IMG/VR virus record: IMGVR_UViG_3300022934_000173
Location: 1 to 24,604 of that record
From: a virus
Direction: 5' to 3' (one strand)
Length of the DNA stretch: 24,604 bases
Part shown: positions 2,082 through 11,474 of the stretch, piece by piece
How the letters are laid out: every line of letters begins with the position of its first letter
Position numbering within the stretch: position 1 is the first letter of the stretch
The notes under the pieces: generated by a model
Seen by the model: only the letters and a program-made list of their open reading frames with translations
Databases searched by the model: none
Told to the model about the DNA's origin: nothing
Translations under genes and position numbers: made by a program

Positions 2082-2929
2082 TATTCACGCTCCAATCTTT
2101 CTAGCAGCATTGTTCCCACTACTTGCGCAACTTGCGGCACTACTGCATTGCCTAGTCCTCTAAGTCTGTCCACCCGAGAGGGAACCCCATCAGCCACTCG
2201 ACCCACGTCGGGTTCAGTTGACCACTGCTCTCCGATGTCCTCACAGCCTCGTCTAAATTGCCTCGATAATATGGACTCCCCGCGAATCGTTTCTTGCTCG
2301 CTCCTTTTGCGTTGCTTGTTGTCGGAGTCGGCCACATTCCGGTCGATGCCATCCCACCGAGAGAATTGACACCTTTCCATTTCTTCACGTTCGCGTTCTT
2401 GTTCATTCTTCCCGTCCCTGTGTGATCCATTGTGTTTGGCGTAGGCAATGATAAACACCCGATCACGTCTGTGAGGCGCACCAACTCCGGCAGCCGGTAT
2501 GCAGTGCCATTCTGCGTCATACCCGATCTCGGCCAACTCTCCGAGTACGGCTCCCATTCCTCGAACAAGGAGTGCTGAGACGTTCTCCAACACGATTGCT
2601 CTGGGTTTGAGTTGTCGAGCCACGCGAACGATTTCAAAAAACAACCCTGACCGTTCTCCATTCAAGCCTGCTCCTTTCCCTGCTACTGAAATATCTTGGC
2701 AGGGAAACCCGCCAGCCATAACGTCCACTTTCCATTTACTGCTACTGTCGGGAGGAAATGTGCGAACGTCTCCCCATCGCTCAACGTTTGGCCAATGCTT
2801 TTCGAGAACTTTGTTGGCATATTTGTCTATCTCAACTTGCCACCGACATTTCATGCCGCAACGCTCAAAACCCAAATCAATGCCACCGATCCCAGCAAAC
2901 AGACTTCCAAATGTGATTTGTTTGCTCAT
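2081..2929 (-). CDS. dcm: DNA (cytosine-5)-methyltransferase
   Basis: A 282-residue C5-cytosine methyltransferase, complete in its catalytic motifs: I (FAGIGG, 11-16, AdoMet binding), IV (GGFPCQ, catalytic Cys77), VI (ENV, 115-117), VIII (PHRRDR, 152-157) and X (RLRGLGNAVVPQ near the end). It transfers methyl groups from S-adenosylmethionine to carbon 5 of cytosine in a specific DNA site. The target recognition part between VIII and X is short (about 100 residues) and very charged. No cognate restriction enzyme is adjacent, so it is an orphan enzyme, probably protecting phage DNA from host restriction. The frame is open upstream to 3019, but the ATG at 2929 overlaps the previous stop as ATGA and fits the usual short N-terminus. 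A second long frame lies inside it (2152-2661). Confidence 0.92.
   Translation of the reverse strand: MSKQITFGSLFAGIGGIDLGFERCGMKCRWQVEIDKYANKVLEKHWPNVERWGDVRTFPPDSSSKWKVDVMAGGFPCQDISVAGKGAGLNGERSGLFFEIVRVARQLKPRAIVLENVSALLVRGMGAVLGELAEIGYDAEWHCIPAAGVGAPHRRDRVFIIAYAKHNGSHRDGKNEQEREREEMERCQFSRWDGIDRNVADSDNKQRKRSEQETIRGESILSRQFRRGCEDIGEQWSTEPDVGRVADGVPSRVDRLRGLGNAVVPQVAQVVGTMLLERLERE
2152..2661 (-). CDS. Overlapping ORF inside the m5C methyltransferase gene, possible dual-coding gene
   Basis: A 169-codon frame, ATG start, lies wholly within the methyltransferase in another frame of the same strand. It would normally be dismissed. However, its product has features that I recall from phage proteins linked to cytosine methyltransferases: SESWPRSGMTQNGTAYRLP, WPTPTTSNAKGA, and the ending LNPTWVEWLMGFPLGWTDL. 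The same DNA encodes methyltransferase motifs VIII and X in the main frame, so either both frames are used or the recalled proteins are themselves out-of-frame annotations. No good ribosome binding site was identified. It is reported as a possible gene; the methyltransferase frame is the secure one. Confidence 0.3.
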   Translation of the reverse strand: MENGQGCFLKSFAWLDNSNPEQSCWRTSQHSLFEEWEPYSESWPRSGMTQNGTAYRLPELVRLTDVIGCLSLPTPNTMDHTGTGRMNKNANVKKWKGVNSLGGMASTGMWPTPTTSNAKGASKKRFAGSPYYRGNLDEAVRTSESSGQLNPTWVEWLMGFPLGWTDLED

Positions 2930-3222
2930 TTCCAATGCCTTGACCTGTAATTCCTTCCGTCCTTGCCTTTCACAATCGCATCCGCGATCACCGTTCTGGC
3001 TGAGTTGCCAAAGTTCCACGGTAGGCAGGTTGATGGCTCGCTACGTGTCGATGCTCCGACGCCAGAGAACGCAGCTCCGTCCGCTGGTCCGAGGATGTGA
3101 GCCACGATCCCGCGATCAGCCATCAGCCTAGCTTCCCGTTCAGCGTGTGCTTGAGCCGCTGGCTCGATGCTCGTTCCTGTTGGTGGCATCGCTGCGAGTA
3201 TTGCTGCCACGATCATGTCCAT
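2926..3222 (-). CDS. Small hypothetical protein
   Basis: A 98-residue protein of unknown family. It starts with a hydrophobic stretch (MDMIVAAILAAMPPTG), then an alanine- and charge-rich helix (EPAAQAHAEREARLMADRG) and a C-terminal part rich in Gly, Ser and Arg. The N-terminus is too short to be a confident membrane segment. The ATG at 3222 has AAGGAG eight bases upstream; an ATG two codons later is an alternative. It lies between the candidate helicase loader and the cytosine methyltransferase, overlapping the latter's start by four bases (ATGA), and is therefore in the same operon. I cannot assign a function. Confidence 0.55.
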   Translation of the reverse strand: MDMIVAAILAAMPPTGTSIEPAAQAHAEREARLMADRGIVAHILGPADGAAFSGVGASTRSEPSTCLPWNFGNSARTVIADAIVKGKDGRNYRSRHWK

Positions 3223-3251
3223 CTCTTTTGCTCCTTGCTCTCTGTGTCGAA

Positions 3252-3746
3252 TCAATTATCAATCATCCAGTCCGGCTTCTCCGTTTCGATGCCGTTGATG
3301 ACGTTCCTGTCCCACTCAAGTAGCTCCTCGAGCATCACATCGTTCTCTTGCTTGGTTATTTTTCCCTGCTTAACCCAAGATCCGAGCGTGATGCTCCAGT
3401 ATCCAGTCCGCATCTTCTTGACTGCTGCCATCGCTCCTCGGCTCTGGCCGTGATAGTTCTCTTGCTGCGTCTGCTTCGATTGTCGCTTGAATCGACGATC
3501 ATTGGCTTCTCGCTTGATGTTCTTCGGCAATGCGTCCGGCTTTTCATATCTTCCGACGGGATCTAAATTACCGGCCACAATCTCGGAGACGACCTCGGCG
3601 ACATCGCTGGCGTCACAATCGGCCAGCATGTTGCACCAAAGATCCAGAGTCGTGTTCGGCTGGTCGGTTCCTTCCAACCACTGCCTGTAGCTCGGAAACG
3701 CCGTTAGAACGCGGCCAAGCTCCGCTCGTGCATCCGTTGCGTTCAT
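3252..3746 (-). CDS. Candidate replicative helicase loader (G39P-like)
   Basis: A 164-residue protein beginning four bases inside the end of the initiator gene (ATGA), with GAGGAT just before the start. Residues 10-75 (LTAFPSYRQWL, TTLDLWCNMLADCD, VAEVVSEIVAGN, DALPKNI) resemble the helical N-terminal domain of SPP1 G39P-type helicase loaders, in which a short helical bundle is followed by a flexible tail that contacts the replicative helicase. The remainder is basic and glutamine-rich, then helical. The position directly after an O-like initiator matches lambda gene P, also a helicase loader. The assignment rests on pattern and place; no catalytic motif is expected. Other replication accessory roles remain possible. 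Confidence 0.45.
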   Translation of the reverse strand: MNATDARAELGRVLTAFPSYRQWLEGTDQPNTTLDLWCNMLADCDASDVAEVVSEIVAGNLDPVGRYEKPDALPKNIKREANDRRFKRQSKQTQQENYHGQSRGAMAAVKKMRTGYWSITLGSWVKQGKITKQENDVMLEELLEWDRNVINGIETEKPDWMIDN

Positions 3747-4432
3747 ATCCTCAGTTTTTCCTTTGTGCTGCCGGCATTGCGTTGTTTATCAAAGTCGCGA
3801 TCTGAGTCCAATATTGATCTGGCTCCTTTTTGAATAGAGAAGTCGATATCACGCTTCGCCTTCTCCGGTCCTCGGCGGTTCAGTTCCATCAGCACCGCGT
3901 CAGCTTGGACTTCTGGGATCTTCCGTCCGTCCACTGAGAACCGGAACTCACACCAGCGATTCCATTCGTCTGCAAATCCTTCCGCATGGGTGGAGAGAGA
4001 TATATTCTTCTCTTCTCTTCTCTTCTCTTCTCTGGTCACGCTTTTGTCACAAGTCGAGCGTGACACTTGCGTGACACTTTGGCGACGTTTCGCCTGCCGA
4101 ATAGCGTCAATTCCCCGTTTTTTCGCACTTTGCGATAAATGACGGTCCCAGTTAGGGATTCTGATCACCGGACGATCGCCAGTGTCGTCATACTCCAACC
4201 AACCCACGTCACACATCATCTCCGGAAAGCCGGGGAGATTTATACGACGTCCGAGCGACGTTAGCGTGACACCTGTCACGGTATCAGCGTGACATTGGCG
4301 TGACACCCACGACCAAAGAGCGTGACAGTAGCCTACGATCGCCTCTTCCCTGACGCCTAGTTCATCCGCCATTTGCATGACGGCTGGATCTTCCATTAGG
4401 TCGATCCTCATCTTGATCCAATCACCGGCCAC
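3743..4432 (-). CDS. Lambda O-like replication initiator
   Basis: A 229-residue protein. Residues 1-95 (DWIKMRIDLMEDPAVMQMAD, later GRRINLPGFPEMMCDVGWLE) resemble the winged-helix N-terminal domain of phage replication initiators of the O/DnaD kind. Residues 110-140 are a basic linker (REEKRREEK) and residues 145-229 are helical, a likely partner-binding domain. The GTG start is preceded by GAGGTGAC. The gene contains six GCGTGACA repeats in two clusters, as in lambda, where the origin iterons lie inside gene O. The initiator would bind these and bring in the helicase loader encoded next. It overlaps the genes on both sides (11 and 4 bases). The exact family cannot be named without a profile search. 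Confidence 0.6.
   Translation of the reverse strand: MAGDWIKMRIDLMEDPAVMQMADELGVREEAIVGYCHALWSWVSRQCHADTVTGVTLTSLGRRINLPGFPEMMCDVGWLEYDDTGDRPVIRIPNWDRHLSQSAKKRGIDAIRQAKRRQSVTQVSRSTCDKSVTREEKRREEKNISLSTHAEGFADEWNRWCEFRFSVDGRKIPEVQADAVLMELNRRGPEKAKRDIDFSIQKGARSILDSDRDFDKQRNAGSTKEKLRI
4008..4032. repeat. Five tandem TTCTC pentamers (polypurine tract on minus strand)
   Basis: Five exact copies of TTCTC lie next to the left iteron cluster; on the minus strand they form a GAGAA polypurine run encoding the charged linker REEKRREEK of the initiator. A long homopurine tract next to iterons could be a site of easy unwinding or unusual DNA structure, or may only reflect slippage in a linker that tolerates it. 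Confidence 0.8.
4034..4328. repeat. GCGTGACA iterons, probable replication origin inside the initiator gene
   Basis: Six copies of GCGTGACA in plus orientation start at 4058, 4069, 4264, 4287, 4298 and 4320. Spacings are 11 bp in the first pair and 23, 11 and 22 bp in the second group, near whole helical turns, so copies within a group face the same side of the DNA. Inverted copies or partial copies sit at 4034-4041 (GGTCACGC), 4045-4050 (TGTCAC) and 4274-4280 (TGTCACG); with the 4264 copy the last makes CGTGACA-CC-TGTCACG. The repeats fall in all three codon frames of the initiator gene (read as CHA, VSR or VTL), so the DNA and not the protein is conserved. This is the arrangement of a lambda-type origin. 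Confidence 0.65.
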
Positions 4433-4649
4433 TTGTCACCTCGCTGGTTCTGATACCTAAAGACATGCACCGGAAAGCAAAGTAGTTCCGCACTCGGTTC
4501 ATCTTTGCTTCGTCCAGTGTCCATTCCATTTCTTCCCACTTGTCGTAATCGATCTCAAAGATGCACTCACGAAGATCATCAATGTTTTGAGCCTTCTTGA
4601 TTCGCATCATGTGCCAACGATCATTCGGCATTTCAGAATGGGAAGTCAT
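4422..4649 (-). CDS. Small conserved protein between ssb and initiator, function unknown
   Basis: A 75-residue protein rich in charged and aromatic residues: RWHMMRIKKAQNIDDLRECI followed by YDKWEEMEWTLDEAKMNRVR. It looks like a compact helical protein; I do not recognise a function. The reading frame is open to 4715, where it lies fully in ssb; the likely starts are the ATG at 4649 (inside the end of ssb) or the ATG at 4631, one base after the ssb stop. Neither has a strong ribosome binding site, so coupling to ssb is likely. Its end overlaps the initiator start by 11 bases. The location in the replication operon suggests a role in DNA replication or recombination. Confidence 0.6.
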   Translation of the reverse strand: MTSHSEMPNDRWHMMRIKKAQNIDDLRECIFEIDYDKWEEMEWTLDEAKMNRVRNYFAFRCMSLGIRTSEVTSGR

Positions 4650-5037
4650 CTGCCATCGGTGCCTTTGCTGCTGGTGCTGGCGTCGGACGCTGTTTTGCTT
4701 CCGATCTTCCACCAAGTAACTGCAAGCGATCCCCGATGATCTTCAGCTTCTTCCTCTCGTATCCGTTCGGATCTGTCCAGGCTTCCAGTTTCATCCGTCC
4801 TTCGACGTAGACAGATGCACCTTTGCCTGCGTACTCGTCCGCGATCTCTGCGTTGCGTCCCCAGAGAGTAACATCCAAAAACAGCGTTTCCTCTTGCCAT
4901 TGTCCGTTCGCATCCTTCCTGTTCTCGTTTACTGCGATCCCGATGTCACAGACGGCAGTTCCGCCTTGCGTCCGTTTAAGATCAACGTCCCTGGTAACGT
5001 TTCCGATAACTTGCACTTTGTTTAGGTTAGCTGGCAT
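4633..5037 (-). CDS. ssb: Single-stranded DNA-binding protein
   Basis: A 134-residue SSB. Residues 1-110 form the OB-fold (NLNKVQVIGNVTRDVDLKRT, CDIGIAVNE, TLFLDVTLWGRNAEIADEY, GASVYVEGRMKLEAW), followed by a short alanine/proline-rich linker and the acidic tip MADDFPF. In the family this tip recruits replication and repair partners and it matches the bacterial DDIPF consensus closely. The protein coats single-stranded DNA during replication and assists RecT annealing. The ATG has AAGGAC seven bases upstream and overlaps the RecT-like gene by 11 bases, so the two are translated together. The shorter linker relative to bacterial SSB is usual in phages. Confidence 0.93.
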   Translation of the reverse strand: MPANLNKVQVIGNVTRDVDLKRTQGGTAVCDIGIAVNENRKDANGQWQEETLFLDVTLWGRNAEIADEYAGKGASVYVEGRMKLEAWTDPNGYERKKLKIIGDRLQLLGGRSEAKQRPTPAPAAKAPMADDFPF

Positions 5038-5626
5038 CGCTGATGTCCTTTAGTTCGTCTGTTGTGTAAAGTCCCAATCCGATCTCTGGTGCTGTCGTCC
5101 TGATCAAGAATGCGGCAGCTCGATAGCGAAGCATCAGCTCCGGCATCGTTTTCCATTTGCTTCCTGACTTCGTTGACCATCCCTCATTCTTGGCCATCTC
5201 GAGCGTAACCTTCGGACCTCTGATTTCTCGGCCAGTGGCTAGCTCCGTCGTGATGGCCACGCACTCGTCTTTCTGGTCGCTAAACTCGTAATAGATAGCA
5301 CCGAACCTTCCGCAAGCGTTGAAGCTCGCAATTAGGAATTGTGCCGACCATCCAGGCTTTCCGTGTATGATGTGCAGCGACTGCATAACCATCAGCGGAT
5401 CTGCATTCATACGCTTCGACATATTCATCGCGACCACCACGTCTGCGATGTTGCCTTGGTACTGTTTCGGCACCAGCGACGATGAAGAAAGCAGTTTAGC
5501 TTCCCTCTGCTTAAGCTCGAATGTCTTGGTATCAGCTTCGACGATTGATAATGCCGTCTCTGCATCTTTGCTCGCTGTGACATCCACCGCGGCACCATCA
5601 TCAAGCACCTCTATCAATTCGCTCAT
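5027..5626 (-). CDS. recT: RecT-family single-strand annealing recombinase
   Basis: A 199-residue protein. The core LVPKQYQGNIADVVVAMNMS, MNADPLMVMQSLHIIHGKPG, WSAQFLIASFNACGRFGAIY and MPELMLRYRAAAFLIRTTAP is that of a widespread phage annealase group related to RecT/Redbeta, which pairs complementary single strands in recombination-dependent replication. The first 45 residues are an acidic extension. The ATG at 5626 has AAGGAAG close upstream and AGGAG nine bases away; longer in-frame starts exist up to 5740 but would overlap the preceding gene heavily. The next gene is ssb, its usual companion. No partner exonuclease of the lambda Exo type is visible in the window; the PD-(D/E)XK-like protein at 9138-9713 is a distant candidate. 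Confidence 0.75.
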   Translation of the reverse strand: MSELIEVLDDGAAVDVTASKDAETALSIVEADTKTFELKQREAKLLSSSSLVPKQYQGNIADVVVAMNMSKRMNADPLMVMQSLHIIHGKPGWSAQFLIASFNACGRFGAIYYEFSDQKDECVAITTELATGREIRGPKVTLEMAKNEGWSTKSGSKWKTMPELMLRYRAAAFLIRTTAPEIGLGLYTTDELKDISDAS

Positions 5627-5885
5627 CTTCCTTTTCTCCTGAAGATTTAACATCGTATGCACTGCCGACCCGACCGGCAGCACGCATCTCGTTGACGATC
5701 TCGAGCCAGTCCGATGCTTCGTCCTGACGTCCTTTTTCATAGGCTCGCAAGCACATCAGCATAATGTCACCTTGTTTGCCGTATACATCTGCCTTCGGAT
5801 CGTCCGGCAGATTGTTTTGCTGTTTAGTTATTTCCCACTGCGGTTCAAAACTTCTTCGTCTTTCGCCTCGTAGCACTAATGTCAT
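5601..5885 (-). CDS. Small hypothetical protein
   Basis: A 94-residue charged protein without a recognised domain. The middle (GKQGDIMLMCLRAYEKGRQD then EASDWLEIVNEMR) is a likely helix pair; both ends are hydrophilic. The ATG at 5885 is preceded by GAGGAT. It overlaps the RecT-like gene by 26 bases and is only 15 bases from the membrane protein gene upstream, so it belongs to the same transcript. Being next to a RecT-like gene, a recombination accessory role is possible but unsupported. Confidence 0.55.
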   Translation of the reverse strand: MTLVLRGERRRSFEPQWEITKQQNNLPDDPKADVYGKQGDIMLMCLRAYEKGRQDEASDWLEIVNEMRAAGRVGSAYDVKSSGEKEDERIDRGA

Positions 5886-5900
5886 CAGTCCATATCCTCA

Positions 5901-6158
5901 TCACTTGGTGCGAGCCAGCACATCATCGAAACGGCGATAAGTATGACGATCATCGGCGATAATATTTGAAACAGCAGATCCATGTCGAATGTCATAATTT
6001 GATCCCGTGTCAAAGTTGTCCAGGTACTTTTGCCAGTCGTCCGCGATCTGGCGTATCTCTTTGATTCTTAGATCCGCATCTGACTGCATCGACAGTAGCA
6101 ATGCCATCGCCAGTGCAAACGGTGCGATAACACCGACTCCAATAATTGCAAACAGCAT
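5901..6158 (-). CDS. Small single-pass membrane protein
   Basis: An 85-residue protein with an N-terminal hydrophobic segment (LFAIIGVGVIAPFALAMALL, residues 2-21) followed by a hydrophilic helical tail (DADLRIKEIRQIADDWQKYL), probably cytoplasmic or periplasmic. No signal peptidase site is clear, so it is likely a signal-anchored inner membrane protein. The ATG overlaps the preceding stop as TGATG, indicating coupled translation. Small phage membrane proteins of this shape include superinfection-exclusion proteins and holin-like factors, but its early-operon place argues against a holin. Function unknown. Confidence 0.6.
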   Translation of the reverse strand: MLFAIIGVGVIAPFALAMALLLSMQSDADLRIKEIRQIADDWQKYLDNFDTGSNYDIRHGSAVSNIIADDRHTYRRFDDVLARTK

Positions 6159-6397
6159 CAATACAGTCCTCTCTTGATATAATCGAAAGCGATTCTAGAT
6201 GAATCGTAAAAAGCCGACGCTCTCTCTGCGTGACGTAAGGCAGCTTCGAAATCTTCTCGCTTTATCGCCTGTCTTTTCAGAACATGCTCTTCGCTGTTTA
6301 ACTCCATCAGATCATTTGTGATCTTCGACACTACCGCTCTGACCGCCTCGGCTCTCAATAGATACTCCGGCAGTTTTTCTTTTGTTTCTGCTTCCAT
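6158..6397 (-). CDS. Small helical hypothetical protein
   Basis: A 79-residue, highly charged, almost entirely helical protein (AVRAVVSKITNDLMELNSEE, KREDFEAALRHAERASAFYD). The ATG at 6397 has GTGAG about seven bases upstream; a GTG at 6406 is an alternative. Its stop overlaps the next ATG (TGATG), which supports that it is real. It overlaps the end of the cysteine-rich gene upstream by 86 bases, so one of the two may be shorter than drawn. Function unknown. Confidence 0.55.
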   Translation of the reverse strand: MEAETKEKLPEYLLRAEAVRAVVSKITNDLMELNSEEHVLKRQAIKREDFEAALRHAERASAFYDSSRIAFDYIKRGLY

Positions 6398-6509
6398 TGC
6401 ACTCACACAATACTTTTAATCGTCTGCACGTTACACATCTGCAACCGTCGCAGATTGTGTTTTTTGTTTGCCTGCCGCAGTGATTGCAGCAACTTGTCTT
6501 TTTTGCCAT
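6312..6509 (-). CDS. Small cysteine-rich zinc-binding protein
   Basis: A 65-residue protein with a dense cysteine cluster: CCNHCGRQTKNTICDGCRC then VTCRRLKVLCEC, giving at least four CXXC or CXC pairs, so one or two zinc sites (zinc ribbon or treble-clef style) are likely. The tail is basic and hydrophilic. ATG at 6509 was chosen over an upstream start at 6563 that would reach into csrA; the ribosome binding site is weak (TAGGTAA). It lies 47 bases after csrA. The 3' part overlaps the next gene by 86 bases and looks unconstrained there. Zinc-ribbon proteins of this size often bind nucleic acid; no specific role can be given. Confidence 0.5.
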   Translation of the reverse strand: MAKKTSCCNHCGRQTKNTICDGCRCVTCRRLKVLCECNGSRNKRKTAGVSIESRGGQSGSVEDHK

Positions 6510-6556
6510 CGCATTACCTACGCCGTGTGCGAGCCTGATTCCACTTCTACAAAAAA

Positions 6557-6745
6557 TCAGCACGACGTAGGATCTGCGATGCTTGGCTTATTCAGCAATT
6601 CCGCTCTCACAATGTTAGCTTCAAGCGGTGCTTTAATTCCGATCCTTGCTTTGTTGCTGTCAGTCCTTGTTACGACGACTTCTATCTTTTTTCCACACAT
6701 CTCAATGACGATTCCTTGATCTTCTTTTCTTGTCAAAATTAGCAT
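6557..6745 (-). CDS. csrA: CsrA-like carbon storage/translation regulator
   Basis: A 62-residue protein beginning MLILTRKEDQGIVIEMCGKK and continuing RIGIKAPLEANIVRAELL, matching CsrA/RsmA along its length, including Leu4 and the Arg equivalent to Arg44 that contacts RNA. CsrA dimers bind GGA motifs in hairpin loops at ribosome binding sites and usually block or stimulate translation. The ATG at 6745 gives GGAG a six-base spacing; a second ATG sits directly upstream. The frame is open further but its extension runs into the methyltransferase. Histidine 43 of E. coli CsrA is replaced by Val. It follows the methyltransferase after 19 bases. A phage-encoded copy could alter host translation or tune phage genes. 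Confidence 0.88.
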   Translation of the reverse strand: MLILTRKEDQGIVIEMCGKKIEVVVTRTDSNKARIGIKAPLEANIVRAELLNKPSIADPTSC

Positions 6746-6748
6746 CAT

Positions 6749-6757
6749 GCTCTCCTT
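6749..6757 (-). promoter_or_regulatory. csrA ribosome binding site AAGGAGAGC
   Basis: AAGGAGAGC precedes two consecutive ATG codons and decides the start of csrA. The AGGA core is also what CsrA proteins bind, so self-repression is possible. The same nine bases precede the genes starting at 9713, 10261 and 11474. Confidence 0.7.
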
Positions 6758-6764
6758 GTAGTGA

Positions 6765-7727
6765 CTAGAACAGAGCAGGAACATTCTGCTCTTTTTCCTC
6801 GGACCGTAAAAATCCGACAGCGGCATTGAAATAGCTTTCTTTCAGCTCAATGCCTACAAATTTTCTCCCAGCTCTAAGTGACCCGACACCTTCAGATCCA
6901 ATGCCTGCAAAAGGTGATAACACCACATCGCCTGGATTACTCCATATATCGACAGCTCTTTCTATTAAATCGAGCTGAAGTGGACAGATATGCTTTTCGT
7001 CTTGATCCGTCGTTGCCATTTTAAAATTCAAGACGTTAGTCTGGTTAATATCCCACCAAACTGGTTCTGCATATCTTCTCCAGATATCAATAGAAGGATC
7101 TGCCGAAGATGTCTTTCTGCAAAACGGCGAAGGATGCTGATTGTTTGATGATCCAGCTTGGCCGATATATCTGTCAAATCCACTTTTTCGAATAACTGGC
7201 TTATCGCTCATCAATCCTTCTGATGATGGCTTGCGGAATACTAAAAGATAATCCGCCATCCCTTGCCGAACTTGTGACGTGTCACGTTTGACGGTTTTGT
7301 GCAGAAGTCCGTTGTTGTTTGTTCTCTCACGCTCGGTTACTGGACACTTCCAGATAGTAACTCTCGAATGAAATACCCAGCCAGCCTGCTCGAATTCCTG
7401 AATGCAAGCACCAGGAAAGTCTATCAATCCAGTTGTTCCGTAAACATTTGCATAACGTGGAAGGTCTTTGCAATGGACGACGCAAACTCGACCAGCAACA
7501 CAAACGCGAAAAAGCTCCTCAATGCAAAATCGGTAATGCTCAAAAAACTCCTCGTCTGATGTGCAGTTACCCATATCGTTCTCGCTATCGCTGTATATAT
7601 ACAAAGACGAAAACGGAGGAGAATGAATGATCATATCAATTGACTCCTCAGGGACTTGTTTAAGAACAACGCAACTATCTCCGTTATATAAAGTCCAATT
7701 TTCTCCACTGTCTGTCTTTATTAGCAT
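6765..7727 (-). CDS. DNA methyltransferase, N4-cytosine/N6-adenine type
   Basis: A 320-residue amino-methyltransferase. Motif IV is SPPF (residues 36-39), the catalytic loop in which the base amino group is held; motif I is SPFAGIGSEG near residue 270, followed by RKFVGIELKESYF, the AdoMet pocket. Order IV then I is that of the beta class. SPP(F/Y) is more usual in N4-cytosine enzymes, DPPY in adenine enzymes, but this is not decisive. The part between, about 200 residues, holds the target recognition domain. ATG start, preceded by AAAGGAAA, overlaps the helicase stop by seven bases, a pairing that suggests a common task, such as modifying phage DNA against restriction. No restriction endonuclease partner is certain. 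Confidence 0.88.
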   Translation of the reverse strand: MLIKTDSGENWTLYNGDSCVVLKQVPEESIDMIIHSPPFSSLYIYSDSENDMGNCTSDEEFFEHYRFCIEELFRVCVAGRVCVVHCKDLPRYANVYGTTGLIDFPGACIQEFEQAGWVFHSRVTIWKCPVTERERTNNNGLLHKTVKRDTSQVRQGMADYLLVFRKPSSEGLMSDKPVIRKSGFDRYIGQAGSSNNQHPSPFCRKTSSADPSIDIWRRYAEPVWWDINQTNVLNFKMATTDQDEKHICPLQLDLIERAVDIWSNPGDVVLSPFAGIGSEGVGSLRAGRKFVGIELKESYFNAAVGFLRSEEKEQNVPALF

Positions 7728-9124
7728 TTGATTTCCTTTCGCTTTAAAAAGTTAGGCAATTCAATCTCCACTGATTCCGAATGCTTTGCTAATGATAGAT
7801 CGTCTGCAAGCTCTTTTAGATTTGCTCCTCGCATTGCATCTGCCATGCCTGATTGCATTAAAAAATGATCTGATTCCTTCGTGGCTATTGCTGATTCAAT
7901 AGCTGATTCGCTGTCAGACAAAACTATATCGACGGTAACTGGTTTAACCTGACCAAATCGCCAAGACCTGCGAACGGCTTGATAATAGGACTCAAATGAA
8001 TAACTCAGTCCGGCGAATATCTGCCTATGGCAGTGCTGCCAATTCATGCCGAAACCAGCTACGCTTGGTTTAGTTATTAGCGTTTTGATCTCACCGCAGG
8101 CAAAGTCCAAGAAAACCTGCTCTTTCTTTTTTTCGCTGTCAGTTCCACGAATTTCTACTGCATCCGGCAACTTTTCTCGCAAGCTATCCGCTTCGTAGTT
8201 TGTATCGCACCACACAATGAAGATTTCATCTTCTGCGTTGACAATTTCCGCTGCCTTCCGTGTTCGTGACTCGCATGTCAATCGCTTCTCTTCGTGAATA
8301 TTAGTTGCTGATAACCCACTCGTATTAAAGAGCATTCCATCGGGTGCGACATGCTCATCGGCTGTTACTACGTGTCGTTTTATATGCAATTCTGGCAGAT
8401 CAAATCCGGTATCTTCACCACCGATATCACTTGGCTTTCCTACACATACCGCCCAAGATGAAACCCACTTCCAGAAGTCCTTCTCGCCATGCTTTTTGAG
8501 TCGATAGCCGCCAGCTTTCATTGTGTCGTTGATGAACCACCGCGAAAGCATTTCATTTGATGGCATGATACCTAAGAAGTCGCTATGGTTTCCAAGCTCC
8601 ATTCGATCGTTTGGCGAAGGAGTCGCTGTGCAAGCTAATCGGTATCTCGCTTTTGCGTAGCTTTCAACTAATTGTCGTTTGATCTTTCCCGTGTAGTTTT
8701 TAAGAATGCTTGATTCATCTAAAACAACACCAGCAAACGTGCTCGGATCGAAGTGATGCAGTTTTTCATAGTTGACAAGGTTGATGCCGGTCACGACATC
8801 TGACTGCTTATTTGCGATCCGAACATCGACATCAATGCCGAACTTCTCCGACTCTGACTTTGTTTGCTGTCGCACTCCGACCGGACAATGCAGCACTACT
8901 GGCTTGTTAGTCTTTTTGACGACTTGCTCGGCCCAACTTAGCTGCTGTAGCGTCTTGCCAAGTCCGCATTCCTCAAACAATGCAGCTCGGCCACGTTTGA
9001 GCGACCACTCGACAATGACAGCTTGCCAGTCGAATAGATGCTTGTTGAGATCCCCGACTGGATCAAAACCGCACAACTGCACTGGCTTCCTTTTGCTGTT
9101 TATAAACTCGCTGTAAGTCCCCAC
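7721..9124 (-). CDS. SNF2-type superfamily 2 helicase/ATPase
   Basis: A 467-residue superfamily 2 ATPase. Motif I is CGLGKT (residues 53-58, ATP phosphate binding), motif II is DESS (136-139, a DEXX box variant), motif III is CTATPSPND (from 165), and the second RecA domain ends with SYYQAVRRSWRFGQ, the arginine-finger motif of SNF2 proteins. Such enzymes move along double-stranded DNA and remodel it; phage versions serve in replication or recombination, and others work in restriction systems. GTG start with AGGAAG upstream. It overlaps the methyltransferase and follows the nuclease-like gene after 13 bases; these three form a unit. The DNA here is visibly AT-richer than in the head genes. 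Confidence 0.88.
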   Translation of the reverse strand: MGTYSEFINSKRKPVQLCGFDPVGDLNKHLFDWQAVIVEWSLKRGRAALFEECGLGKTLQQLSWAEQVVKKTNKPVVLHCPVGVRQQTKSESEKFGIDVDVRIANKQSDVVTGINLVNYEKLHHFDPSTFAGVVLDESSILKNYTGKIKRQLVESYAKARYRLACTATPSPNDRMELGNHSDFLGIMPSNEMLSRWFINDTMKAGGYRLKKHGEKDFWKWVSSWAVCVGKPSDIGGEDTGFDLPELHIKRHVVTADEHVAPDGMLFNTSGLSATNIHEEKRLTCESRTRKAAEIVNAEDEIFIVWCDTNYEADSLREKLPDAVEIRGTDSEKKKEQVFLDFACGEIKTLITKPSVAGFGMNWQHCHRQIFAGLSYSFESYYQAVRRSWRFGQVKPVTVDIVLSDSESAIESAIATKESDHFLMQSGMADAMRGANLKELADDLSLAKHSESVEIELPNFLKRKEIKC

Positions 9125-9137
9125 CGCTTCAACTTCC

Positions 9138-9713
9138 TCATGATCTGTGTGTTACTGGTTTCCAAACATCAAAACCGAGCGGCGTCTGCTGCTGCTCGTA
9201 GATTGTCCTGGACGCATGATGACGCCTGAATGCAAGCGTCTTTAGATTTCGCGGATGACGATCAAACCGCATCAACTCAATCAGCTTTTGCTTGTCGATC
9301 TGGTGCCACTCAATCTTTGCCGCGTCCGACTCAATAAGTCCCTTTGGGATCACTCCCCACCACATATACTCGGACGAATCTGGATCGACTCCTGACATAA
9401 CCAAGAGAAAAACACCGAAAAACCTGACCACTCCTTGATTAGTGTCTTTCTGGCCGCAGAACATATTTAGCTTTGACAGCGTATCCATCTGAGCTGTCGT
9501 CGGCTTGCCTCTGCGAGTCTTTACCTCAATCTGCATCAATGCCTGGACTTCTCTGGTGCCTTGCTGGTCAACCGAGGTCATGTATCGATGCAGCGTTACA
9601 TCGTTATCTGATGCTGATAGTCCAAAGTCCCGACCGACGGATGGCAAATCTTTACAGTTTCGCATCCATTCGCAGAACTCAGTATCGCTTCCAAATATTC
9701 GCTCTCGTGTCAT
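9138..9713 (-). CDS. PD-(D/E)XK nuclease-like protein
   Basis: A 191-residue protein. ASDNDVTLHRYM followed by QALMQIEVKTRRGKPTTAQM matches the PD-(D/E)XK nuclease pattern: an Asp before a strand, then E-V-K on the next strand, and a Gln downstream as in VRR-Nuc-like enzymes. The predicted metal ligands are Asp37 or Asp39 and Glu63, with Lys65 catalytic. The C-terminal part is basic and of unknown fold. The ATG has AAGGAGAGC close upstream. It precedes the SNF2-type helicase and methyltransferase by a short gap, which suggests a joint role in DNA processing. It could also be an inactive homologue; I cannot prove cleavage activity from the sequence. Confidence 0.6.
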   Translation of the reverse strand: MTRERIFGSDTEFCEWMRNCKDLPSVGRDFGLSASDNDVTLHRYMTSVDQQGTREVQALMQIEVKTRRGKPTTAQMDTLSKLNMFCGQKDTNQGVVRFFGVFLLVMSGVDPDSSEYMWWGVIPKGLIESDAAKIEWHQIDKQKLIELMRFDRHPRNLKTLAFRRHHASRTIYEQQQTPLGFDVWKPVTHRS

Positions 9714-9725
9714 TTTGCTCTCCTT
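9714..9725 (-). promoter_or_regulatory. Shared ribosome binding site AAGGAGAGCAAA
   Basis: This 12-base site is placed directly before the ATG of the nuclease-like gene and is identical to those before the genes starting at 10261 and 11474. Confidence 0.65.
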
Positions 9726-9742
9726 CTCAAAATGTGTGATGG

Positions 9743-10261
9743 TTAGTCTTTTACGCTCTCTAGTTGTTCGGCCAGTTGATCGACAGTCTTATCTATCGCA
9801 TCAAAGATCAGTTGCAGTTCTCTAAGCACCTGGAACCGACGACGAAACTGCATCGCGTCTCGTATCGCTTTAGCTACCAGCAGATCCCGCGTTGCTGGAT
9901 CAGAAAACGCTTTCTCTGTAGTGGTATATAGAGTCTTGCCTTCTTCGTCGCCGCGTTTCTTTTGCACCGTGATCTGATGCGAGCGAACCGGCATCTCTGG
10001 CCGTTCTTCGTAAATGATCTCGATAGACCGCAGAAGCGTCCTTGCTTGCGTCCTGCGATGCTCTGCCGCTGCTTTCGTGTCGTCCCATTCAAAGACTGGA
10101 TGCAGGACGTGCGTCTTGCGTCTTGCCTTTTCGAGAACGTCATCCGCTGACAATTCACCACCGCAATCATGCCGGATCTGCTCAATCGCGTTGTATGCGT
10201 CCGAAGCGGACACTCCGCCGGTGTTCGCGTTATTCTTCCATCTAATATCTGTAATCTTCAT
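9743..10261 (-). CDS. Conserved phage protein, function unknown
   Basis: A 172-residue protein. Its middle holds LHPVFEWDDTKAAAEHRRTQ and ARTLLRSIEIIYEERPEMPV, a pattern I recall from uncharacterised phage and prophage proteins; the C-terminal 60 residues (RFQVLRELQLIFDAIDKTVD) are helical. The N-terminal SASDAYNAIEQIRHDCGGEL with DVLEKARRK may be a small DNA- or protein-binding unit. ATG at 10261 has AAAAGGAGAGC immediately upstream; the frame extends further into the CCNNA array but that part is low complexity and was discarded. It starts directly at the edge of the array and ends 29 bases before the nuclease-like gene. No function can be given. Confidence 0.7.
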   Translation of the reverse strand: MKITDIRWKNNANTGGVSASDAYNAIEQIRHDCGGELSADDVLEKARRKTHVLHPVFEWDDTKAAAEHRRTQARTLLRSIEIIYEERPEMPVRSHQITVQKKRGDEEGKTLYTTTEKAFSDPATRDLLVAKAIRDAMQFRRRFQVLRELQLIFDAIDKTVDQLAEQLESVKD

Positions 10262-10274
10262 TTGCTCTCCTTTT
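10261..10274 (-). promoter_or_regulatory. Shared ribosome binding site AAAAGGAGAGCAAA
   Basis: AAAAGGAGAGCAAA runs straight into the ATG and fixes the start of the 172-residue gene. It is the same module as before the genes at 9713 and 11474. Confidence 0.65.
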
Positions 10275-10290
10275 GTGCTTTTAGTAAATG

Positions 10291-10680
10291 CCAAACCTAA
10301 CCTCACCCAACCTAACCCCACCACACCGTACCTGACCTAACCATACCTGCCTCACCACACCTTACCAGACCATGCCGGACCTGACCGCACCTTACCAGAC
10401 CTTACCTGCCTCACCTCACCCCACCAGACCTCACCTGACCTCACCCCACCACACCAAACCCCACCGAACCTGCCTCACCAAACCGCACCAGACCTCACCT
10501 GACCGCACCTTACCAGACCATGCCGAACCTCACCTGCCTTACCATACCGAAACGAACCCGACCTAACCGAACCAAACCGAACCGCACCCCAGCACACCTG
10601 CCTCACCTCACCGCACCGCACCTTACCCGACCTCACCCAACCAGACCTCACCTGCCTCACCTCACCTCACCAAACCGACC
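10291..10680. repeat. Degenerate CCNNA pentamer array with CCTG phase breaks
   Basis: About 390 bp made almost wholly of pentamers of the form CCNNA (about 75 units); on the transcribed minus strand these read GG plus three bases, over and over. The two N positions vary freely. Single shortened units CCTG break the phase at 10346, 10405, 10469, 10533, 10597 and 10651; distances are 59, 64, 64, 64 and 54 bp, i.e. ten to twelve pentamers plus one tetramer. Each CCTG is followed by CCTCA or CCTTA. Longer blocks recur, such as CCGCACCTTACCAGACC near 10385 and 10503. No gene is convincing here. The minus strand is G-rich and almost free of C, so a transcript could form two-tier G-quadruplexes or R-loops. 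Confidence 0.9.
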
Positions 10681-10784
10681 CAGCGTTGCTTATGTTTATG
10701 CTTATGTAATGCTCTACCAAATACACTCGCATAAAGCCGGCTGACGCTGAGCCGCTTAACGAAACCATGCTTTTGGAAAAAGGC
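10681..10784. other. Intergenic spacer between array and upstream gene
   Basis: This 104-bp stretch is of ordinary composition. It holds three TTATGY units in a row (from about 10690) and, on the minus strand, a bulged stem-loop AAGCGGCT-AGCCGGCTT near 10736-10760 without a proper T-run, so it is at best a weak terminator. A TGGTAGAGC string recalls a tRNA D-arm but no acceptor or T-arm pairs with it. No gene is seen. Confidence 0.5.
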
Positions 10785-11474
10785 TTAAATCTGTCTAGCG
10801 TCCACTGCGATATCGGTATCTAGCTCAAAGCGTCCAAACTCTCCGCCTTTCTCTGGACGCCATTCAAGCAAGCCAGCACCGAAGCCTGCACGCTCAAGCA
10901 AAACGAGAAGATCGGACACCTGCAAAAGCTCCGCGTCTATCTCGAACGAAAGATCCGCTTTCCACTTGTCAATCTGTGGACGGTACCTGAGATCGGTGCT
11001 ACCCATACCGATTCGGCAAACGTCCTCTCTGATATGCGGATCAGTCGCTTCCGAGAACGGAATCACGCCGCTTGGATCTTCGCATTTGATAAACAGCGAC
11101 TTACGCACTAGAGTCTTTTCGATGCCAAGATCTTTGTGCGCCACATTAATCATCGCGGCTTTAATAGCGACTGCCGGAATGCCTACTTCGTCGATGCTTG
11201 TAAGATGCAAGCAGCTCTGAGCTTCTGCTTCAGGATCACGCAGTTCTCGGTCTTTGGTCTTTTTGCCTTTCTGCTGCTTCTCGCGAATCATGAGCTTTGC
11301 TTTCTCGCTCCACTTGTGCATGATGATCGGCGAGGTGCTTCTGATCGACACATCTACGATGCAACGATTGATCCGCTTTAGCTGAACCTGATCTTTGCCG
11401 TTTGCTTTGCCGTTCAACAGATCCGAAATTCTATTAGTTAATCCGTTCGTAGAACCGTTACTTGTAGCTGGCAT
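10785..11474 (-). CDS. Conserved early phage protein, function unknown
   Basis: A 229-residue protein. After a Ser/Asn/Lys-rich N-terminal 35 residues comes a globular part: STSPIIMHKWSEKAKLMIRE, IPAVAIKAAMINVAHKDLGI, DLRYRPQIDKWKADLSFEID and a Gly-rich end GAGLLEWRPEKGGEFGRFEL. This set recurs, as far as I recall, in uncharacterised proteins of many tailed phages; I know no function. The glycine-rich end resembles RNA-recognition-type or Cas7-like folds, but that is speculation. The ATG at 11474 is fixed by AAAGGAGAGC; the open frame further up crosses the terminator and is not coding. It is the first gene after the leader with the promoter and terminator, hence probably the first early product. 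Confidence 0.7.
   Translation of the reverse strand: MPATSNGSTNGLTNRISDLLNGKANGKDQVQLKRINRCIVDVSIRSTSPIIMHKWSEKAKLMIREKQQKGKKTKDRELRDPEAEAQSCLHLTSIDEVGIPAVAIKAAMINVAHKDLGIEKTLVRKSLFIKCEDPSGVIPFSEATDPHIREDVCRIGMGSTDLRYRPQIDKWKADLSFEIDAELLQVSDLLVLLERAGFGAGLLEWRPEKGGEFGRFELDTDIAVDARQI

What the first reader, a model, noticed from the sequence alone, without database searches (positions are those of the whole stretch)
10291..10680. Degenerate pentamer array with regular phase breaks
About 75 consecutive CCNNA units, two positions free, plus six 4-base units CCTG at 10346, 10405, 10469, 10533, 10597 and 10651, spaced 59, 64, 64, 64 and 54 bp. The pattern keeps CC and A exactly every five bases while the rest drifts, which is not simple slippage. 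On the transcribed strand it is GGNNN repeated, the ideal spacing for two-tier G-quadruplexes, and nearly free of C, favouring R-loops. Inference: a structured non-coding RNA, an R-loop origin, or a protein-binding track. I know no described phage element of this form.
Basis: partly seen in the sequence, partly recalled or inferred. Interest (0 to 1): 0.8.

Follow-up and report, generated by a model that had tools for sequence, protein, structure and literature searches.

The report
A phage's VIPR guide-RNA array
The odd five-base repeat is a string of six guide RNAs belonging to VIPR, a CRISPR-like system first described in 2026 that phages use to switch off rival phages, and the "phase breaks" are the borders between one guide and the next.

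Summary
In detail: 10289-10690 is an ACCNN array, read as GGTNN/YNNGG on the minus strand. GGT is almost invariant (position entropies 0, 0.22 and 0.19 bits) and NN almost random (1.9 bits). Shuffles never come near it.

It is not a G-quadruplex or R-loop element. It is a vrRNA array of a VIPR system (PMC13142463, preprint of April 2026). Evidence:
- The adjacent minus-strand gene (10785-11474) is a Vipr homologue. It shares phrog_4652 with the SUSP1 Vipr, hits the solved "SUSP1 Vipr protein" (36pp; profile E 5e-13) and has a predicted Cas7/Csm3-like RAMP fold (Z 12.3).
- Of 79 viral loci chosen only by this protein, 61 carry a GGYNN array, always on the vipr strand.
- The gene after the array has homologues near vipr in 64 of the 79.

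The six "breaks", plus a seventh at the array's end, are GGCA|GGT junctions that delimit six guides. In related phages whole junction-to-junction units recur, partly in different order.

No target was found. Novelty is membership plus the junction detail, which may equal the preprint's "staggered arrays".

The parts
10289..10690 (-). vrRNA array, (YNNGG)n on the minus strand: six complete guide units plus a 5' partial unit (10657-10685)
10600..10652 (-). guide unit 1, NN = GA CT TG GA CG AA GC GC GA GA
10536..10598 (-). guide unit 2, NN = GT GG GC TC TT TC TA CG TC TC AT AA
10472..10534 (-). guide unit 3, NN = GA TC AT CT AA GC CA GA CT GC TT GA
10408..10470 (-). guide unit 4, NN = TC GG TT GT GG GA CA GA CT GG GA GA
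10349..10406 (-). guide unit 5, NN = AA CT AA GC CA CC AT CT AA GT GA
10290..10347 (-). guide unit 6, NN = AT TA CA AC GT GG TA TG GA TA TT
10289..10292 (-). junction GGCA (TGCC on +) that ends the array; six more at 10348-10351, 10407-10410, 10471-10474, 10535-10538, 10599-10602, 10653-10656
   Evidence: sequence; junction conserved in 73 fetched contigs, 263 junctions
10785..11474 (-). vipr gene: RAMP protein of about 229 aa (ATG at 11474 is the likely start; the mechanical ORF runs to 11531)
9743..10261 (-). probable vipr-accessory (vap) gene, 172 aa, phrog_15946; starts about 28 bases after the array

Best explanation
The array is the guide (vrRNA) locus of a VIPR system carried by this phage. 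It lies on the minus strand between the Vipr gene in front of it and an accessory gene behind it, and is probably transcribed with them. Each of six units is a run of 10-12 GGU/NN repeats closed by GGCA. Copies of the RAMP protein Vipr most likely sit on the GGY steps, leaving the NN dinucleotides free to pair with DNA that matches them in the pattern NNxNNx (one target base skipped per step). Binding would block transcription of the matched gene, most likely a gene of a competing phage, prophage or satellite. The phase breaks are the GGCA|GGU borders between guides. Shown here: the array, the Vipr homology and predicted fold, the linkage and strand rule, and the modular inheritance of units in relatives. 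Inferred from the preprint's experiments on SUSP1 and Pseudomonas fulva VIPR: RNA loading, the one-base skip and repression. Unknown: this array's targets and how single guides are cut out.
For: Array form equals the published vrRNA form: conserved GGY, hypervariable NN, 9-16 repeats per guide. Adjacent protein: phrog_4652 E 4.5e-25, the phrog to which SUSP1 Vipr belongs (1.4e-96); PDB 36pp_D 'SUSP1 Vipr protein' by phmmer E 2.8e-4 and by family profile E 5e-13 over nearly the whole domain; AlphaFold model pLDDT 85, pTM 0.76, matched to Csm3/Cas7 RAMP subunits at Z up to 12.3; invariant residues in the G-rich loop region, consensus GFGVGIGEWRPEKGG..GRF. Independent linkage: 61 of 79 loci fetched by the protein alone carry a period-5 GGY array, all on the vipr strand, none opposite; GGY at periods 4, 6 and 7 gives 0, 1 and 0. 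Accessory gene conserved in 64 of 79. Units between junctions are inherited as blocks in L018/L093/L098 (1-5 edits between shared units of 49-64 nt; most other pairs 12 or more), partly at different positions. SUSP1's own vrRNAs were recovered as a positive control beside its vipr and vap genes, as the preprint describes.
Against: No target was found: two 9-NN cores had no exact match in viral contigs, and three 8-NN cores gave 23, 2 and 16 matches whose flanking NNs agree only at about chance level. No dedicated 3' tail like that of SUSP1 exists between units. Expression is not shown, and no sigma-70-like promoter was found near the array.
Confidence: 0.94

Rival explanations
1. A degenerate pentamer satellite grown by slippage and unequal exchange, with no function; the breaks are copies of one deletion spread by higher-order duplication.
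For: Tandem Repeats Finder sees 59- and 64-base higher-order periods at about 72% match; units 3 and 5 share the run CT AA GC CA, and some units in relatives share halves.
Against: Slippage would not keep GGT while randomising NN (0-0.22 against 1.9 bits), nor place such arrays beside one protein family, on one strand, in 61 of 79 loci.
Confidence: 0.02
2. A G-quadruplex or R-loop element, for example a replication origin.
For: GGTNN repeats are G-rich and nearly C-free on one strand and could form two-tier quadruplexes (sequence).
Against: Quadruplexes need neither the conserved T nor random NN nor GGCA junctions; the window array is one of many tied to a RAMP gene. Quadruplex formation was not tested here.
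Confidence: 0.02
3. A VIPR array as above, but bound by Vipr as one long scaffold rather than as separate guides, so units are not cut apart.
For: No tail or spacer lies between units here; other arrays run to 78 uninterrupted repeats (L083).
Against: Junctions recur with fixed GGCA|GGY and bound units that move as blocks; the preprint reports overlapping vrRNAs in staggered arrays.
Confidence: 0.15

Closest known systems
VIPR (Viral Interference Programmable Repeat), Escherichia phage SUSP1 and Pseudomonas fulva prophage, type II (PMC13142463)
   Same: Vipr of the same protein family; vrRNAs of alternating GGY/NN; phage-borne; minimal locus with one accessory gene; arrays flank vipr on its strand.
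   Different: SUSP1 guides are separate and each ends in a structured 3' tail; here six guides follow head to tail with only GGCA between them. The accessory gene (phrog_15946) is not in SUSP1 vap1's phrog (phrog_5926).
VIPR 'staggered arrays with overlapping vrRNAs' (PMC13142463, fig. S18)
   Same: By the main text's words, probably the same architecture as here.
VIPR-like arrays of actinophages (Gordonia UmaThurman, Gordonia Ecliptus, Mycobacterium Saal)
   Same: Vipr relatives at 36-37% identity beside arrays with GGCA|GGY junctions.
   Different: GC-rich arrays use GGC more than GGT; the proteins are annotated only as hypothetical.
Class 1 CRISPR-Cas RAMP proteins (Csm3/Cas7)
   Same: Fold of the Vipr homologue (Z 12.3).
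   Different: No CRISPR repeats or cas genes seen at the locus; guides are read two bases at a time rather than continuously (by the preprint).

Membership tests
VIPR system | Vipr protein: RAMP homologue with RRM core, glycine-rich loop and thumb, about 20 kDa | tested here: met
   phrog_4652 shared with SUSP1 Vipr; PDB 36pp_D E 5e-13; RAMP fold Z 12.3; conserved G-rich loop. The thumb was not examined separately.
VIPR system | vrRNA of 9-16 YNNGG repeats, GGY conserved and NN hypervariable | tested here: met
   six units of 10-12 NN; entropies 0-0.22 against 1.9 bits
VIPR system | vrRNA locus beside vipr, with an accessory (vap) gene | tested here: met
   array about 95 bases behind vipr on its strand; downstream gene conserved near vipr in 64 of 79 loci. 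That it is one of the preprint's vap1-6 was not tested.
VIPR system | invariable 3' tail after the repeat tract | tested here: inconclusive
   no SUSP1-like tail between units; only GGCA|GGY is constant. The preprint describes tail-bearing type II and staggered arrays; the latter could not be read.
VIPR system | vrRNA expressed and bound by Vipr | not testable with these tools
   needs RNA sequencing and pull-down
VIPR system | targets follow the 1-nt skip rule | tested here: inconclusive
   no target found by exact cores in viral contigs; NN usage over 421 tracts fits codon positions 1-2 best but an order-only test does not separate this from genome background
CRISPR array | identical repeats separated by unique spacers, with cas genes | tested here: not met
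   the region shows degenerate 5-, 59- and 64-base periods and no identical repeats with unique spacers; no cas or other defence family hit for the vipr, vap and upstream genes in PADLOC, none in NCBIfam beyond insignificant ones

The most novel reading that the evidence does not exclude
A tail-less VIPR subtype in which the seven-base junction GGCAGGY replaces the structured 3' tail as both processing site and handle, so that guides are stacked at nearly no cost and exchanged as blocks between related phages.
Probability: 0.3. Interest if true: 0.55.

Novelty: new member of a known kind. Interest (0 to 1): 0.45.

Why it matters
The window is an independent, blind rediscovery of VIPR from raw sequence, in a phage with no close relative among the fetched loci, and it supports the preprint's claim that the system is widespread in phages. 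The strict GGCA|GGY junction and block-wise exchange of units give a concrete handle on two open points: how guides in continuous arrays are separated, and how a system without a known adaptation module acquires and renews guides.

Tried and rejected
Rfam: no family hit in the window. Local target search of 347 tracts against 2 Mb of fetched DNA with 0-3 skipped bases: a slight excess of near matches for one skipped base (22 best matches at 3 mismatches against 11 each for the other rules), too weak to use. Collection scans for targets of units 1-5: no extendable match; the recurring peptides of the unit 4 and 5 hits are a consequence of the pattern, and many hits lie outside plausible frames. 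Unit 6 was not scanned. Host by Vipr relatives in 294 genomes of one phylum: only distant hits, host not identified. Codon-phase test of NN usage: suggestive only. Fold of the accessory protein: confident model (pLDDT 92.9) but no significant PDB match, the weak ones being mostly winged-helix regulators.

Full report
Observation. The array lies at 10289-10690 and reads ACCNN on the plus strand, GGTNN on the minus strand. Over 68 units in register the three fixed positions carry 0, 0.22 and 0.19 bits of entropy and the two free positions 1.90 and 1.89. A run of 12 of 12 units occurs, while 100 dinucleotide shuffles of the window never passed 6 and 1000 shuffles of the array itself never passed 8. 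A seventh junction of the same kind ends the array at 10289-10292, so the spacings are 59, 59, 64, 64, 64 and 54.

It is not unique. Many of these are degenerate arrays with their own recurrent separators, while some are simple repeats. This showed a class of element, and a literature search found it described: VIPR, a phage-borne RNA-guided system made of a RAMP protein (Vipr) and vrRNAs with alternating GGY and NN (PMC13142463).

Vipr. The gene next to the array on the same strand (10785-11474) belongs to phrog_4652 (E 4.5e-25), as does the Vipr of phage SUSP1 (1.4e-96). It matches the solved SUSP1 Vipr protein 36pp directly (E 2.8e-4) and, through a profile of 27 relatives, at E 5e-13. The predicted model (pLDDT 85, pTM 0.76) matches Csm3/Cas7 RAMP subunits with Z up to 12.3. 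The family keeps a conserved glycine-rich loop. As a positive control, SUSP1's own vrRNAs were found in the gaps beside its vipr and vap genes.

Linkage. The 79 viral loci fetched by this protein alone were scanned for arrays. GGY at period 5 occurs in 61, in every case on the vipr strand and never on the other. GGY at periods 4, 6 and 7 gives 0, 1 and 0. The gene that follows the array in the window (9743-10261) has homologues, mostly just downstream of vipr, in 64 of the 79, so it is the probable accessory gene. Its predicted fold is confident but has no significant PDB match.

The phase breaks. Reading the minus strand, each break is GGCA followed by GGT. Between breaks lie six tracts with 10-12 NN each. 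The same junction, GGCA|GGY inside a GGY array, was found in 73 fetched contigs, 263 times, and in named Gordonia and Mycobacterium phages. In related contigs, whole junction-to-junction units are shared with 1-5 edits and partly at different positions (L018 unit 3 with L098 unit 1 and L093 unit 3; L018 unit 6 with L098 unit 7), while most other unit pairs differ by 12 or more. The breaks are therefore borders between modular guides. In the window the NN before the junction is nearly fixed (GA in 5 of 6), so it probably belongs to the junction.

Mechanism. By the preprint, Vipr holds the GGY steps and the NN pairs read target DNA with one base skipped per step, repressing transcription. For this array that is inference. 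Searches for targets of units 1-5 in viral contigs found nothing beyond chance. NN usage over 421 tracts resembles codon positions 1-2 in sense (divergence 0.029 bits; 0.153 and 0.142 for sense 2-3 and 3-1; 0.187, 0.085 and 0.263 for antisense 1-2, 2-3 and 3-1; 0.073 for the phase-less genome background; phase 1-2 the best in 200 of 200 bootstraps of sense/antisense mixtures). This would fit skipping the wobble base. But a stricter test on base order alone does not separate this from phase-less genome background, so it is only suggestive.

Verdict. A new member of a known, very recent kind. Two details go beyond what could be read in the preprint's main text: the GGCA|GGY junction as the border between guides in tail-less head-to-tail arrays, and block-wise exchange of guides between related phages. 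The preprint's supplement (staggered arrays, fig. S18) may already contain the first.

Noticed in passing
L083 (IMGVR_UViG_3300012971_000018), about 2608-10365 on +: Many GGYNN tracts of 14 to 78 nearly uninterrupted units, well over the published 9-16, some separated by a fixed TTTATTTGTAGATTTTCTGC spacer.
   Followed up: no
L229, L230, L231 (Gordonia Ecliptus, Mycobacterium Saal, Gordonia UmaThurman): Vipr relatives annotated as hypothetical proteins next to GGCA|GGY arrays; ready laboratory phages for testing VIPR.
   Followed up: partly
L119, L010, L082: Other separator types between tracts: a TTTCTC..GAGAAA hairpin in L119, GGCTAATG in L010 and L082.
   Followed up: no
window 6557-6754 (-): A phage-borne CsrA homologue (Pfam CsrA E 2.1e-16); CsrA binds GGA motifs (general knowledge), so a link to the G-rich RNA array is conceivable but untested.
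   Followed up: no
window 6765-9124 (-): A DNA methyltransferase gene beside a SNF2-type helicase gene.
   Followed up: no
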